Below the pieces are notes generated by a model that searched no databases, was not told where the DNA came from, and was given only the letters and a program-made list of their open reading frames with translations. From Spirochaetota bacterium (GTDB lineage Bacteria; Spirochaetota; UBA4802; JAFGDQ01), in NCBI GenBank assembly GCA_016934735.1, contig JAFGSG010000071.1, positions 27,369-91,368 on the forward strand: DNA of 64,000 bases, given 5' to 3'. The position numbers were made by a program, and so were the translations under genes. Of the stretch, positions 41,730 to 48,152 are shown in pieces; positions within the stretch are counted from its first letter, which is position 1, and the number at the start of each line of letters is the position of its first letter.

Positions 41730-42701
41730 TTAAAAATTAATATGCACATTGGGGCGGAAGATCAAAGACCAGTGTTCGTCAACCCTTTGTTTAAGCCTTC
41801 CCGAATATCCGCTGGAATTTGTTTTCAACGCTCCAACCGATAACGATAATGCCACGTTTTCGCTAACAACAAGCTTTTTTCCGAAAAGGAAAAGATACCT
41901 GGTTATCCTGTGTTTGCCCAGCATTTGCGGGTCAAAATCAATCCTGACTTCCTGTTCGCTGTTTTTTGTAAATATATTCAGTATCGGATTGCCCCCTTCA
42001 AGGATATAATCAATCCTGTTCCGTTTAATAGAAATATAAAGGGCGTCTTTTATATCAGGATGATAATGTTTTTTATATCCTATTGCATAACTCCAGCTTA
42101 TATCTCTTGTTTTTCTTACATCAGATCCTTTTACTTTTATTTCTGTTTCAAACCAGTTGTCATCAACCATGGTGTTGTCAACAATGTGTTTATTGCCGTA
42201 GCTAAAAAGAAGTCCGCTGAAACCTTTCCCCACTACTTCTTTGTCTTCCTTTATAAAATCCACAACATTGCCCAGAAAGAAGGAGAATGCCCATGGTTCC
42301 GGGAAGCCGGCTGTTATTGATCTGACAATATTAATATTTTCGGAAATTTGCGATTTTTCCTGCCATGCTGTGTTTTTTTTTATGTAAACGCCTGCAATAG
42401 GCAGGGGGTAGATACTGGCTTCGAGAAGGACGAACTGGGGCATATAGATATTTTTGATCAGATAATAATAAATATTCTTTTCATTTGAATAAGGTTCTTT
42501 CGGGATCGATTTATCCGTAAGAGAAAATATATATGAAACATTTGAATAATACTGATCAAGTTCAAAACTGAATTCGTGTTTTCCCGCGTCATCAAGCTGA
42601 AATGTTTTTTCGTAAGCTAAGGATCTTAAGGGATAGAATAAAATTAAAAATAAAAGCCATGTTTCTATAAATATCAGATTTTTATTTGTATTTATAATCA
42701 T
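41730..42701 (-). CDS. Exported protein, probable outer-membrane beta-barrel
   Basis: The 323-residue protein has a signal peptide (hydrophobic residues 13-28, cleavage near SLAYEK) and a body of alternating polar and aromatic strands, for example EIKVKGSDVRKTRDISWSYAIGYKKHY and HRITRYLFLFGKKLVV. It ends in FRPNVHINF; a terminal phenylalanine is the usual assembly signal of outer-membrane barrels. I do not recognise the family. It converges on the pseudouridine synthase. Confidence 0.65.
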   Translation of the reverse strand: MIINTNKNLIFIETWLLFLILFYPLRSLAYEKTFQLDDAGKHEFSFELDQYYSNVSYIFSLTDKSIPKEPYSNEKNIYYYLIKNIYMPQFVLLEASIYPLPIAGVYIKKNTAWQEKSQISENINIVRSITAGFPEPWAFSFFLGNVVDFIKEDKEVVGKGFSGLLFSYGNKHIVDNTMVDDNWFETEIKVKGSDVRKTRDISWSYAIGYKKHYHPDIKDALYISIKRNRIDYILEGGNPILNIFTKNSEQEVRIDFDPQMLGKHRITRYLFLFGKKLVVSENVALSLSVGALKTNSSGYSGRLKQRVDEHWSLIFRPNVHINF

Positions 42702-42800: not shown

Positions 42801-43601
42801 CTATGATGCAAGATATTTCGATAACTTATAAAGAGCACGTTTAACGGAAGGCATTCCGAATGATAATCCGGAAAGGAAGCCGTAGTATTCTTTCCCGTCC
42901 CTCTTTTCTGTGGGCTTTATCGGCCGCGGATTGGTCGGGAGCCCGAATTTTTCCGGGATGTCTTTTAGTATTGTAATTACGTGCATGCCTCCGAATTCTT
43001 CAAGCCCGTAAATGCATGCGTCCGGGAAATTTTTTTTTATTATTTTCAGCCTTTTTTTCGCAATCGCGACAATCTTGAGCCTGAAGTCGAATGTGAGCGC
43101 ATCGCTTGGGCATGCGCTCACGCATGCCGGTATTTCTCTTGCTTTTACAGTGCACGCATGGCATTTGTATGCTTTGTCTTTATCAATAAATCCGCCTGTA
43201 CCGTACTCATTGTAATCCTTGTTCGCCAGATGCGGTACATTGTATACGCACGCCCGGACGCACTCATCGCATCCAATGCATTTTTCCTGATCTATAATAA
43301 CCCAGTAGTTGTTTTTATAAATCGCTTCAGCAGGGCAGACTGTAATGCAGTTCGCTATTTCACAGTGAAAACATTTTTTATGCATCATTTGCAGGATGGG
43401 TATGCTGCTGTCAGCACTTTCTATTCCGGTAATTATTACATGGTTGAAGGTGATTGCGGATAATTTCTCAGGACTTGTATATTCATGTGGAAAGGAAGAT
43501 ATCTCATCCGAAGGCAGATTGTTCCATTGTTTGCATGCAGTCTGACATGCCTTGCATCCGGTGCATTTTGTTGTGTCTACAAGGAATGCTTTATCAGCCA
43601 T
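42801..43601 (-). CDS. Formate-dehydrogenase-type four-cluster iron-sulfur subunit
   Basis: The 266-residue protein has four [4Fe-4S] motifs: CTGCKACQTACKQW, CFHCEIANCITVC, CIGCDECVRACVYNVP and CHACTVKAREIPACVSAC. This is the FdnH/FdhB type of electron-transfer subunit. The C-terminal membrane helix of FdnH is absent, so it should be soluble or bound only through the alpha subunit. Its ATG is 1 bp after the stop of the alpha gene. No cytochrome b gamma subunit is in the window. Confidence 0.9.
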   Translation of the reverse strand: MADKAFLVDTTKCTGCKACQTACKQWNNLPSDEISSFPHEYTSPEKLSAITFNHVIITGIESADSSIPILQMMHKKCFHCEIANCITVCPAEAIYKNNYWVIIDQEKCIGCDECVRACVYNVPHLANKDYNEYGTGGFIDKDKAYKCHACTVKAREIPACVSACPSDALTFDFRLKIVAIAKKRLKIIKKNFPDACIYGLEEFGGMHVITILKDIPEKFGLPTNPRPIKPTEKRDGKEYYGFLSGLSFGMPSVKRALYKLSKYLAS

Positions 43602-43602
43602 T

Positions 43603-46563
43603 TTATGCCTCCCTGTCCATGTTTACCAGAAAAGCTTTGTATTCAGGAACACCGGAATTTGCGTCTCCAATGTCATGAGCCAGATTATTGAAGCAATTTA
43701 GTATTGTCGCATTACCGGAATTTGAAACAATGCCTATCAATTCAATTTTTCTTCCGTTAATTATAAACGGCTGAATTCTTTTTGTCACCATGCAATAAGC
43801 GCTTAATTTGCCTCTAAGGGAATGAATTGATACTTTATCGCCGTTCCGAATGCCTTTGGCTTCTGCAAGCGACTGGCTTATTTCGCATAAATAAAACGGC
43901 GAAAGCTCGTCAAGCCATGAAAGATTTTTGGTCATAACGCCTTGCTGCCATTGCTCTGCAATCCTGAACACTGTTGCAATATAAGGATATACTCTGCTGT
44001 TCCCGCCCTGATTTTGCTTTGCAGCAATGATTGCCGGATTAAATGCGGCAGCGTTAAGCAGGTTGCCTGTCGGGCTTTCCATCGGTTCATAATGTTCCGG
44101 CAAAGGGCCGTCTGCCATGTTTCCGGCAAATATTTTTCCGACTCCTTCCTCCAGCATAATAAACGGATTTTTTTCCGCAGGGCCTGCCATGCCCTCGCCG
44201 TTAACCGCGTCTCCCTCCCATACGTCGTCCCATTCTGTCAGTTGTTTTTCCTGGGCCCACGGTTTGCCGAGCCTGTTTACGCCTGCCCTGTTGTAAAGTA
44301 TTCTGCTGTTGCCGGGCCAGCTCCATGCCCATCCCGGGTACAAGCCAAGCTTGCTTGACAAGTCCCGCGTGCTTCTTCTTGCGGTCATGCTGCCGGTTTC
44401 GGAATAGCTTCCGCAATAGAGCCAGTTGCCTGCAACAGTGGAACCGTCATCCTTCAGCCTGCCGAATTCAGGTACCTGTTTATGGGTTTTCAGGTCATAT
44501 CCGTTTATTTCTCTGCAGACCTCAAGAGGATCGGGGTCGTTTTTCTCTCCTTTGTAATCCCAGTTTGAGTGCGTTATGCAGTCGGGGAAAGAAGCGTTTT
44601 TATCTTCAGTGTAAAGTCTTTTTAATTCATTAAAAATCGTATCAATGATCCATAAATCGGATTTTGCCTGCTCCGGGGGATTCACAGCTTTGTTCCTCCA
44701 TTGCACCCATCTTCCGGAGCTGGTCAGGGTGCCGTCTTTTTCAAACGCGGATGCAGACGGTATAAAAAAAACTTCGGTTTTTATTTTTTCGGGTTTTGCA
44801 TTCGGCCTTTTCCAGAAAGCAGCGCTTTCAGTTTCAAATATACCGGTCACTGCGATCCATTCGAGGTTTTCCATTGTCTTTGCTTTTAATCCGGTATTTG
44901 GAGCGTTCATCAATGGATTCGCACCGGCAAATACAGCTCCCTTAATTATACCTTTCTGTATTTCGCTAAAAATATTTTTTTGGTAATTGCTTTTGCTGAT
45001 TTTAGGAAGCCAGTGAAAGCAGTAATCGCTTTCTTTTAATGCGGCTGCCCCGTAATAAGCTTTAAGCAGATTTATTATCTGATAATTTCTCCTGCTTAGA
45101 ATATTTATGCTCATGGGATTATTTGTTAGAGGGGACACGCTTTTTATGTACGAATCTAGAGTAGAATGTTCTTCAGCAAGAGGGACAGGGAGATATCCCG
45201 GCAGATAATCGGATCGCATTCCGTGATCGTCACATCCCTGTTCATTCGGCCCCTGCCTCAGCGCGTTTAGTCCGCCGCCCGGAATGCCGATGTTTCCTAA
45301 CAGCATCTGGAGGATAGCGTATGCCCTGATATTCTGCGCGCCTACAGTGTGCTGTGTTGCTCCGGAAGAAAAAAGTATCGCTCCTGCTTTTCCGGATTTG
45401 CCGGTTGAAGTAAACATATTCGCGATTTTTAAAAAAGTATCTTCGGGGCATCCAGTTATCCGGGAAACAATATCCGGTGTGTATCTGGAAAAATGATTTT
45501 TTATAATCTGGAAAACAGATCTGCTGTTTTTCAGGGTCTTGTCTGCACGCGGAATGCCTTTTCTGTCCTTCTCATAATCCCATGCGTTGTAATTATATTT
45601 TTCGCCTTTTAAACCATTGAAAATGCCGTTTTGAAATTTATATTCCTGATTTATGATAAATGATGCGTTTGTATATTCTAAGACATATTCCCTGTTTATT
45701 CTGTTGTTTTGAAGCGCATAGTTAATAATGCCTCCGATAAACGCGATATCTGTACCCGGCCGCAAAGGCGCGTATATATCGGCTAAAGATGATGACCTTG
45801 TGTAACGGGGATCAACATGGATAACCTTCCCGCCTTTTCCCTTTGCTTTTAAAATGAATCTGACAGAAACCGGATGAGTTTCAGCCGGATTGCTACCGAT
45901 TGCCAGGATCACGTCCGCGTTCTTAATGTCTATCCAGTGATTTGTCATTGCGCTATATCCGAAGGTGTTGCGAAGAGCCAGGCCTGCTGCGCTGTGCGAG
46001 TATTCCGATTCATTGTATATACCGGTGATGCCTAAAATCCTGGCCATTTTGGAAAGAAGGTAATATTCCTCATTGTTAAGCGATGATCCGGCAGCAACAA
46101 CTATTCCTGAGGTTCTGTTTACAGTGGTTTTCCCTTCATATTCTATAAATGTTTTTTCCCTTGCGTCCTTAATTTTTTCTGCGATCTTCTTTATTGCTTC
46201 TTCCCACGATATCTCGCGCCAGTCCGATGCATATGGCGCCCTGTACATTACTCTTCCGAGTCTTTTACTATTATGGCTGCTTAGCTGAAAAGCGGCACTG
46301 CCTTTTGAGCACAATTTGCCCCTGTTGATGGGATGTACCGGGTCGCCTTCAATGTTTACAATTTTATCATCTTTAACGGATACGGTCATACCGCACCCCA
46401 TACTGCACATGGGGCATATACTTGAAATTTCTTCTGCGCCTTTTAGTTTATTAACCGCCGCCCTGCGACAGCTGTATAAGAAAGATAAGGAAGCGTTTCC
46501 CAGAAATGCAGCCATGGTCGTGAAGCCGGATAATTTAAGGAAATTTTTTCTGGTAACCTTCAT
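43603..46563 (-). CDS. Formate-dehydrogenase-like molybdopterin oxidoreductase, Ser at the Sec/Cys position
   Basis: The 986-residue protein belongs to the FdnG branch: an N-terminal targeting segment (TRKNFLK, near-Tat, residues 4-10), a [4Fe-4S] motif CPMCSMGCGM with GKLCSKG, then the molybdopterin domains and the tail DIGDANSGVPEYKAFLV. The block matching FdnG NQARVUHGP reads NESEYSHSA here, so residue 189, the molybdenum ligand position, is Ser (codon TCG) followed by the conserved His190. There is no in-frame TGA. The start at 46563 has AGGA upstream. Formate oxidation needs Sec or Cys, so activity may differ. It is followed at once by the iron-sulfur subunit. Confidence 0.88.
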   Translation of the reverse strand: MKVTRKNFLKLSGFTTMAAFLGNASLSFLYSCRRAAVNKLKGAEEISSICPMCSMGCGMTVSVKDDKIVNIEGDPVHPINRGKLCSKGSAAFQLSSHNSKRLGRVMYRAPYASDWREISWEEAIKKIAEKIKDAREKTFIEYEGKTTVNRTSGIVVAAGSSLNNEEYYLLSKMARILGITGIYNESEYSHSAAGLALRNTFGYSAMTNHWIDIKNADVILAIGSNPAETHPVSVRFILKAKGKGGKVIHVDPRYTRSSSLADIYAPLRPGTDIAFIGGIINYALQNNRINREYVLEYTNASFIINQEYKFQNGIFNGLKGEKYNYNAWDYEKDRKGIPRADKTLKNSRSVFQIIKNHFSRYTPDIVSRITGCPEDTFLKIANMFTSTGKSGKAGAILFSSGATQHTVGAQNIRAYAILQMLLGNIGIPGGGLNALRQGPNEQGCDDHGMRSDYLPGYLPVPLAEEHSTLDSYIKSVSPLTNNPMSINILSRRNYQIINLLKAYYGAAALKESDYCFHWLPKISKSNYQKNIFSEIQKGIIKGAVFAGANPLMNAPNTGLKAKTMENLEWIAVTGIFETESAAFWKRPNAKPEKIKTEVFFIPSASAFEKDGTLTSSGRWVQWRNKAVNPPEQAKSDLWIIDTIFNELKRLYTEDKNASFPDCITHSNWDYKGEKNDPDPLEVCREINGYDLKTHKQVPEFGRLKDDGSTVAGNWLYCGSYSETGSMTARRSTRDLSSKLGLYPGWAWSWPGNSRILYNRAGVNRLGKPWAQEKQLTEWDDVWEGDAVNGEGMAGPAEKNPFIMLEEGVGKIFAGNMADGPLPEHYEPMESPTGNLLNAAAFNPAIIAAKQNQGGNSRVYPYIATVFRIAEQWQQGVMTKNLSWLDELSPFYLCEISQSLAEAKGIRNGDKVSIHSLRGKLSAYCMVTKRIQPFIINGRKIELIGIVSNSGNATILNCFNNLAHDIGDANSGVPEYKAFLVNMDREA

Positions 46564-46745: not shown

Positions 46746-47033
46746 ATGATGAAAGCAGTTAAGACGTTTTTAATAATTATAACAGCCGTAATGCTTATGG
46801 TTTCATGTAAAATGTCAGATAAGGAAATGACCCCGGAAGATTTTTTAAAGATCGAAACTGAATATCTTAACTCGGATTTAAAGATTGAAACAAAAGAAGC
46901 CATAGCAAAGAAATACGGCTATACCATTAAAGCATTTACGGATTTTGAAGAAAAAGTGGATAATGACCCTGCCCTTAAAAAACAGATCGGCGAATTAATG
47001 CTTAACCAGAAAACGAAAGGTGTAAGGAAATAA
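46746..47033 (+). CDS. Small lipoprotein (95 aa)
   Basis: The 95-residue protein has a type II signal peptide with lipobox LMVSC (Cys at about residue 22) and a short acidic helical body. The family is unknown to me. ATG at 46746 (or 46749) follows AGGAGG. It is a separate transcription unit with a promoter and a strong terminator, divergent from the formate-dehydrogenase-like genes. Confidence 0.8.
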   Translation: MMKAVKTFLIIITAVMLMVSCKMSDKEMTPEDFLKIETEYLNSDLKIETKEAIAKKYGYTIKAFTDFEEKVDNDPALKKQIGELMLNQKTKGVRK

Positions 47034-47040
47034 ATTGAGC

Positions 47041-47080
47041 TTATAGAGACGCAATGCGTTGCGTCTCTATAATTTTTTTT
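47041..47080 (+). terminator. Strong Rho-independent terminator (14-bp stem)
   Basis: TTATAGAGACGCAA (47041-47054) pairs perfectly with 47059-47072, with loop TGCG and a run of eight T. It lies 7 bp after the lipoprotein stop. The stem also contains the stop codon of the convergent amidohydrolase gene. Palindromes with AGAGACGCAA arms are frequent intergenic repeats in other bacteria. Confidence 0.9.
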
Positions 47081-47921
47081 CCAGGAAATTTTTTAAAATA
47101 ACAGCCGCGTTTTCTCCGCATATATTTTTTTTATCATCCTCATTGTTTAAAACTTTATTAATTGAATCAAAATACTTTTTAAAATTTATAAGAGGATAGT
47201 CGCTGCCGAATAGTATTTTTTTTGAACCGGTAATTCTAACAGCTATTTCGAATATATCTTCTTTATAAAGATAGGGAGATGCTGCAGTGTCGTAGTAAAC
47301 ATTTTTAAGCGAAGCACGTGTTTCTTCCATCAGCTCGTAGAAAAACAGTCCCCCGCCCCAGTGCGCGAGTATAATAACAGCACTGGGAAAATTTTTTATT
47401 ATCGTATACAATATTGAAAGATCCGTGCTATGTTTTCCCGTGTAGTCTTTGCCCACAGGTTCGCTTACATGAACACAGACCGGCAGAGAGTATTTTGTGC
47501 CTGCAGCGAATACCTCCTCTAAAATACCAGCGGTTCTATATGTCAGTCCTTCACCGTAAAATGCTACTTCTCCGATGCCTGCCAGTCCGAGTTCTTTTAT
47601 ATATTTTGCCCAGTCGTCTGCCTGCTGTTTATCATTCAGAGGGACGGAGCCGAACGGGATAATTCTTCCTTTTGATGAATTTTTTAAACTGCTGAAATAT
47701 TTATTCTGTTTTTCGCAGTATTTTTCTTTTTCCCATGGAAATCCCATTGCGGCTGCGTAGCCGACGTTCGATTCATCCATTGCCTTAATAAGTGTATTGT
47801 GGCTGATCAATTTTGATTTTTCGCAGGAATAAAGAATAGAAAATGTCTGGTCGTCTAAAAAATTTGTTTTGTTCTCAATTACATATGAATCGAATACGTG
47901 AGTATGAAAATCAATTATCAT
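47067..47921 (-). CDS. Amidohydrolase-2 family metal-dependent hydrolase
   Basis: The 284-residue protein is a TIM-barrel hydrolase: IDFHTHVFD at the N-terminus (HxH metal motif), HVSEP in the middle, LAHWGGGLFFYE, and GSDYPLINFKKY with the metal-binding aspartate. The order of motifs fits the amidohydrolase-2/TIM-barrel group acting on carboxylated rings or lactones. I chose ATG 47921, which begins right at the conserved MIIDFHTH; an upstream TTG at 47948 would add nine residues. Confidence 0.87.
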   Translation of the reverse strand: MIIDFHTHVFDSYVIENKTNFLDDQTFSILYSCEKSKLISHNTLIKAMDESNVGYAAAMGFPWEKEKYCEKQNKYFSSLKNSSKGRIIPFGSVPLNDKQQADDWAKYIKELGLAGIGEVAFYGEGLTYRTAGILEEVFAAGTKYSLPVCVHVSEPVGKDYTGKHSTDLSILYTIIKNFPSAVIILAHWGGGLFFYELMEETRASLKNVYYDTAASPYLYKEDIFEIAVRITGSKKILFGSDYPLINFKKYFDSINKVLNNEDDKKNICGENAAVILKNFLEKKL

Positions 47922-48152
47922 TTTATGTGTAGCAGAGGCTGACTGCAATTCAATTTAATTAGACCTGCCGGAAACCGAGTATCCGTTTTAATGAAAGATT
48001 AAACTTATGTAAATCTCTCTCAATCTTATCATTTGAAACGGCCTTTATACAAAGATTCAGGCAGTAAGATGGAACAATATTGATACTTTTTATGATGTCA
48101 ATATATTTTTATTCCAAGGTGTAATACAAAACGGGCTGCAAACTGAGAAAAG

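What the first reader, a model, noticed from the sequence alone, without database searches (positions are those of the whole stretch)
43603..46563. Formate-dehydrogenase homologue with serine as the predicted molybdenum ligand
In FdnG-type enzymes the block NQAR-V-U/C-HGP puts Sec or Cys on Mo/W. The homologous block here is NESEYSHSA: the ligand is Ser189 (TCG at 45997-45999), with the following His kept. The rest of the protein, including the C-terminus, is FdnG-like. A Ser ligand is normal in DMSO-reductase-type enzymes but unusual in this branch, so the enzyme may oxidise or reduce something other than formate.
Basis: partly seen in the sequence, partly recalled or inferred. Interest (0 to 1): 0.75.

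Follow-up and report, generated by a model that had tools for sequence, protein, structure and literature searches.

The report
Formate dehydrogenase relative, eroded active site
A bacterial (Spirochaetota) gene still has the full shape and electron wiring of formate dehydrogenase, but it and its four nearest cousins have lost the metal-binding residue and much of the formate pocket, so the serine seen here is more likely a by-product of that loss than the mark of a new serine-bound enzyme.

Summary
The 986-aa FdnG-type protein (43603-46563, minus strand) has Ser189 (TCG, 45997-45999) where canonical enzymes have Sec or Cys, and no nearby Cys can stand in. The reading of serine as a DMSO-reductase-like Mo/W ligand is not supported. 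In 104 canonical FdnG proteins from many phyla, every one that covers the site has Sec or Cys followed by His. Only five proteins, all from this one Spirochaetota order and forming one clade, differ, and their ligand position is Ser, Pro, Gly, Ser and Asp. The His and the catalytic Arg are kept only in the window protein. Losses concentrate in the published active-site loops. The fold, the [4Fe-4S] cysteines, the downstream beta subunit with all 16 cluster cysteines, and the pairing of the two genes are kept. Dehalococcoides OmeA-like proteins, an independent lineage with Ser at the same place and reported to lack formate dehydrogenase activity, lost largely the same positions. Best reading: an independently evolved formate-dehydrogenase-N derivative that has given up formate chemistry while its iron-sulfur relay stays under selection. 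Scaffold or electron relay is the likeliest role. New substrate chemistry, with or without serine on the metal, cannot be excluded.

The parts
43603..46563 (-). fdnG-type catalytic-subunit homologue (986 aa) with non-canonical active site
   Evidence: AlphaFold2 model pLDDT 87, pTM 0.90, Z 55 and rmsd 1.5 A over 935 residues to D. vulgaris FdhA
45997..45999 (-). Ser189 codon (TCG) at the Sec/Cys metal-ligand position
45979..46002 (-). residues 188-195, equivalent of the D. vulgaris active-site loop I191-P198; 4 of 6 near-invariant residues lost, His190 kept
45229..45258 (-). residues 436-445, equivalent of D. vulgaris R441-T450; Arg436, Asn440, Gln442 and Gly443 kept, Gly437, Val441, Ser444 and Thr445 lost (T450 equivalent is Asp)
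45352..45381 (-). residues 395-404; near-invariant T395, Y398 and A399 replaced
43648..43716 (-). residues 950-972, degenerate C-terminal segment (WHFG...GDxxNxLTP motif of canonical enzymes eroded)
46309..46416 (-). [4Fe-4S] binding segment, Cys50/53/57/85 all kept; Lys87 just after it also kept
46444..46563 (-). Tat-type N-terminal signal (TRKNFLK) with a Cys32 where canonical enzymes of this order have a lipobox (FLTGC)
42801..43601 (-). fdnH-type four-cluster iron-sulfur subunit, start one base after the fdnG-type stop; all 16 cluster cysteines kept

Best explanation
The gene pair encodes a periplasmic complex derived from a formate dehydrogenase-N type FdhAB that has lost formate chemistry. 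In one clade of this Spirochaetota order the Sec ligand was lost and the residues that hold formate and shape the metal site then changed freely. The protein fold, the proximal [4Fe-4S] site and the four-cluster partner subunit stayed under selection (shown by sequence). The most likely working mode (inferred) is a redox relay or scaffold: electrons pass through the iron-sulfur chain, or the alpha subunit holds the complex together, without oxidising formate, as proposed for OmeA in Dehalococcoides. Ser189 is then incidental: one state of an unconstrained position, not a conserved oxygen ligand. Whether a pterin cofactor is still bound is unknown.
For: (1) The ligand position is S, P, G, S and D in the five members, against Sec/Cys followed by His in every canonical homologue that covers the site. 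(2) The formate pocket as published for D. vulgaris (U192, H193, R441, Q447, T450; PMC10478512, PMC9820355) is broken in all five; the four other members keep none to two of the five residues. (3) Losses are enriched in the published active-site segments: window 8/14 against 22/182 elsewhere, Fisher p=1.9e-4; other members p=0.014 to 2e-7; canonical controls show no enrichment. (4) OmeA-like proteins of Dehalococcoidia, a separate lineage (AU test rejects one clade, p=2.5e-5), lost largely the same positions: 23 shared, odds ratio 22, p=1e-12; the Dehalococcoides member is reported inactive as a formate dehydrogenase (PMC5736913). (5) All FeS cysteines of both subunits are kept in all five genomes, and the ORFs of about 1000 codons are intact. 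(6) The five form one clade (SH-aLRT 98) with longer branches than their Sec sisters. (7) The genome keeps SelB, FdhD and two soluble formate dehydrogenases with Sec and Cys, so loss of Sec here was not forced. (8) A canonical cluster in the order (L160) carries mobA, an fdhE-like gene and fdhD next to the pair; none of the five variant loci does.
Against: The window protein is the least eroded member (166 of 196 near-invariant positions kept) and keeps His190, Arg436 and Gln442, so it alone might still have a working metal site. Retention of the proximal [4Fe-4S] and of Lys87 in four of five argues that electrons still reach or leave a redox centre in the alpha subunit, which fits a dead scaffold poorly. 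No membrane or cytochrome partner was recognised beside it, and the genome has no NrfD hit, so the relay has no identified ends.
Confidence: 0.66

Rival explanations
1. One reading: a working Mo/W enzyme with serine as metal ligand, acting on something other than formate, for example an N- or S-oxide.
For: Ser at the exact ligand position, with His190, Arg436 and Gln442 kept; the bis-MGD-type fold is intact.
Against: Ser is not conserved in the clade (S, P, G, S, D); the nearest relative has Pro-Asn there and no Arg. Several pocket positions carry unusual charged residues (V441E, T445D, L450R).
Confidence: 0.12
2. A working enzyme with bound cofactor but no protein ligand to the metal (as in arsenite oxidase) and a new substrate; the pocket changed because the substrate changed, with different members using different substrates.
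For: FeS site and Lys87 kept, scaffold residues kept; amino-acid divergence high but ORFs intact.
Against: No pocket residue pattern is shared by the five; the replacements differ among members. No substrate-related gene is conserved beside the pair.
Confidence: 0.17
3. A decaying gene without present function (pseudogene in the making).
For: Long branches and loss of catalytic residues.
Against: Intact frames of about 1000 codons in five genomes of two families, all 20 cluster cysteines kept, pair always kept together.
Confidence: 0.04
4. Sequencing or assembly error at the ligand codon.
For: Reads were not available.
Against: TCG is two changes from both TGA and TGC, the whole loop differs, and four other assemblies lack Sec/Cys as well.
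Confidence: 0.01

Closest known systems
Desulfovibrio vulgaris FdhAB / E. coli FdnGH (formate dehydrogenase-N type)
   Same: Fold (Z 55, rmsd 1.5 A over 935 residues), proximal FeS site, four-cluster beta subunit, Tat-type signal, gene order alpha-beta
   Different: Sec/Cys ligand lost, T450 and other near-invariant active-site residues lost, C-terminal segment degenerate
Dehalococcoides OmeA (FDH-like CISM large subunit, Ser at ligand; PMC5736913, PMC10772276)
   Same: Ser at the Sec/Cys position; 23 of the same near-invariant positions lost in the two groups; Tat-type FdnG-like protein
   Different: Separate lineage (AU p=2.5e-5); OmeA is followed by an apparent membrane subunit and lacks an adjacent FeS subunit (L168), whereas the window pair has the FeS subunit and no NrfD-type partner was found in the genome
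[quoted passage not shown] PMC6303296, PMC13059093)
   Same: Principle: a molybdoenzyme subunit kept after losing catalysis, working in an electron-transfer complex
   Different: QrcB has no redox cofactors, whereas the window protein keeps its [4Fe-4S] cysteines; not the same family by best match
DMSO reductase (Ser-ligated Mo)
   Same: Ser at the ligand position and the general superfamily
   Different: Distant (phmmer E 8.7e-5 to 1dms against about 1e-249 to FdhA)

Membership tests
Formate dehydrogenase-N alpha (FdnG, TIGR01553) | Profile match over the curated cut-off | tested here: met
   1040 bits against 814, residues 3-983
Formate dehydrogenase-N alpha (FdnG, TIGR01553) | Sec or Cys metal ligand | tested here: not met
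   Ser189
Formate dehydrogenase-N alpha (FdnG, TIGR01553) | Formate pocket His, Arg, Gln, Thr (H193, R441, Q447, T450 in D. vulgaris) | tested here: not met
   His190, Arg436 and Gln442 kept, Thr replaced by Asp445
Formate dehydrogenase-N alpha (FdnG, TIGR01553) | Proximal [4Fe-4S] cysteines and four-cluster beta subunit | tested here: met
   Cys50/53/57/85; 16 of 16 cysteines in the beta subunit
Formate dehydrogenase-N alpha (FdnG, TIGR01553) | Formate oxidation or CO2 reduction activity | not testable with these tools
   needs protein
OmeA (organohalide-respiration CISM subunit) | Descent from the OmeA lineage | tested here: not met
   separate clades; AU test p=2.5e-5
OmeA (organohalide-respiration CISM subunit) | Reductive dehalogenase in the same genome | tested here: inconclusive
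   no PF13486 hit in five genomes, but no control genome rang either
QrcB | Match to the QrcB profile over its cut-off | tested here: not met
   NF041783 81.5 bits against a cut-off of 440; TIGR01553 far better
DMSO reductase, Ser-ligated | Ser conserved as ligand among close relatives | tested here: not met
   S, P, G, S, D in the clade

The most novel reading that the evidence does not exclude
A clade of formate-dehydrogenase-N descendants in one Spirochaetota order has independently become a non-formate redox complex, in parallel with OmeA, and in the window species the metal site has been rebuilt around Ser-His-Arg for a new reaction.
Probability: 0.12. Interest if true: 0.72.

Novelty: new variant of a known kind. 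Interest (0 to 1): 0.45.

Why it matters
A curated profile names this protein a formate dehydrogenase well over its cut-off, so genomes carrying it will be credited with periplasmic formate oxidation that they probably lack by this route. Two unrelated lineages gave up Sec/Cys and then lost largely the same 23 positions. That gives a sequence signature for telling working formate dehydrogenases from retired ones, and a natural experiment on which residues serve formate chemistry and which serve the scaffold and electron wiring.

Tried and rejected
A 392-genome search of the phylum found no sixth member, although only matches up to E 1e-150 were listed. Idea that Sec loss was forced by loss of Sec decoding: rejected, SelB and a Sec formate dehydrogenase are present. 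Idea that the downstream gene 41730-42701 is a conserved third subunit: rejected, it is unlike the downstream gene of G001/G002, and that family also occurs in other genomes of the order, several of them on contigs other than the one with FdnG. Idea that the clade is OmeA acquired by transfer: rejected by tree. Papers on Ser variants of formate dehydrogenase were not found in the open library.

Full report
Observation. The ORF at 43603-46563 (minus) encodes a 986-residue protein that matches formate dehydrogenase-N alpha over its curated cut-off (TIGR01553, 1040 against 814 bits). Its best solved relatives are D. vulgaris FdhA, D. gigas FDH and E. coli FdnG. Residue 189 is Ser, codon TCG at 45997-45999. 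It aligns gap-free with Sec192 of D. vulgaris, and His190 follows it. The AlphaFold2 model (44 sequences; pLDDT 87, pTM 0.90) superposes on D. vulgaris FdhA with Z 55 and rmsd 1.5 A over 935 residues, so the whole fold is retained.

Who else does this. The window lies in an assembly related to Spirochaetota metagenome genomes: the same-family genome G002 is the record JAFGDQ010000103.1, named Spirochaetes bacterium. Searching 46 genomes of the order and 392 of the phylum gave many FdnG homologues. The full-length canonical ones of the order and those of many other phyla, 104 in all, carry Sec (TGA) or Cys at the ligand wherever that site is covered, followed by His, with the LRG-x-x-NVQG segment nearly invariant. 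Partial sequences such as L152 do not cover the ligand. Five proteins differ. Listed as ligand, next residue and pocket Arg position, they are: window S-H-R, G002 P-N-S, G001 G-Y-K, G037 S-S-S, G008 D-D-P. They form one clade with SH-aLRT 98, sister to the Sec enzymes of the same order, on long branches. Trees with members left out keep them outside the canonical clade of the order or basal to it, though long-branch effects are not fully excluded.

What was lost and what was kept. Of 196 columns that are at least 97% conserved in canonical enzymes, the five keep 166, 157, 154, 153 and 146 (window first); five divergent canonical proteins keep 186-195. The crystallographic formate pocket of D. 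vulgaris is U192, H193, R441, Q447 and T450, and the loop I191-P198 moves with catalysis (PMC10478512, PMC9820355). In these segments the window lost 8 of 14 near-invariant residues against 22 of 182 elsewhere (Fisher p=1.9e-4). The other members give p from 0.014 to 2e-7, and canonical controls give no enrichment. The window itself keeps His190, Arg436 and Gln442 but has Asp for Thr450. In contrast, the four [4Fe-4S] cysteines are kept in all five, Lys87 in four of five, and the beta subunit encoded next to it keeps all 16 cluster cysteines in all five genomes. Frames are intact. Amino-acid change is high but well below synonymous change where that could be estimated (window against G002: dN 0.38, dS 2.9, near saturation).

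Why Ser is probably incidental. If Ser were a selected ligand it should be conserved. Instead the position is S, P, G, S and D. The window TCG and the CCG of its sister G002 differ by one base, GGA in G001 is one base from TGA, and AGT in G037 is one base from a Cys codon. The pattern reads as drift after release from Sec. Loss of Sec was not forced: the genome has a full SelB, FdhD and a cluster with one Sec and one Cys soluble formate dehydrogenase. G037 and G008 also have a canonical Sec FdnG elsewhere in the genome.

A known parallel. Dehalococcoides OmeA, the FDH-like subunit of the organohalide respiration complex, is reported to have Ser in place of Cys/Sec and no formate dehydrogenase activity (PMC5736913; complex described in PMC10772276). 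I fetched OmeA-like proteins from Dehalococcoidia genomes. Three have Ser-Thr with Gly for Arg, one has Ser-Gln with Ser, one Gly-Pro with Asn. In L168, one of the Ser-Thr set, the alpha subunit is followed by an apparent membrane subunit and no FeS subunit, as described for Dehalococcoides. A tree separates them from the window clade, and a common clade is rejected (AU p=2.5e-5). Even so, the near-invariant positions lost in the two groups overlap strongly: 23 shared, odds ratio 22, p=1e-12. This suggests that the shared set serves formate chemistry, and that the window clade has given it up just as OmeA has. QrcB and ActB are further cases of molybdoenzyme subunits kept without catalysis (PMC6303296, PMC13059093).

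Context. In a canonical cluster of the order (L160), the alpha-beta pair is followed by mobA and an fdhE-like gene, with fdhD nearby (fdhD by the G012:C21 hit). None of the five variant loci has these neighbours. The window pair is followed by an unrelated predicted gene (41730-42701), unlike the gene downstream in G001 and G002. No NrfD-type membrane partner was found in the window's genome. A reductive dehalogenase search gave no hit, but the control was silent.

Conclusion. Shown: ligand and pocket loss in a clade, retention of fold, FeS sites and partner, and parallel loss with OmeA. Inferred: absence of formate chemistry, and a relay or scaffold role. Open: whether a Mo/W pterin cofactor is bound and, in the window species alone, whether Ser-His-Arg supports another reaction.

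Noticed in passing
L176-L180, L182 (Dehalococcoidia genomes G443, G680, G482, G510, G534, G576): Another FdnG-type group keeps Cys at the ligand but has Val or Ile for the catalytic His and Ala or Thr for the Arg; the members placed in the tree form their own clade.
   Followed up: partly
L150 (G038:C35): Two fdnG-type genes lie in tandem, one with Cys and one with Sec at the ligand.
   Followed up: no
L003-L024 N-termini: Most canonical FdnG of this order carry a Tat motif plus a lipobox-like FL(T/S)GC, suggesting Tat-exported lipoproteins.
   Followed up: no
46746-47948: A small lipoprotein gene and an amidohydrolase gene beside the pair are conserved next to it in G002 as well.
   Followed up: no
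L066 (Deltaproteobacteria bacterium YD0425bin50): Its FdnG nests among the Spirochaetota Sec enzymes; either a transfer or a mislabelled bin.
   Followed up: no
L148:11714-12406: The beta subunit next to the variant in G008 is only 230 aa and lacks the C-terminal tail found in the others.
   Followed up: no
L145:9187-12129: The G001 variant lacks similarity over the last 35 or so residues, where canonical enzymes have a conserved C-terminal segment.
   Followed up: no
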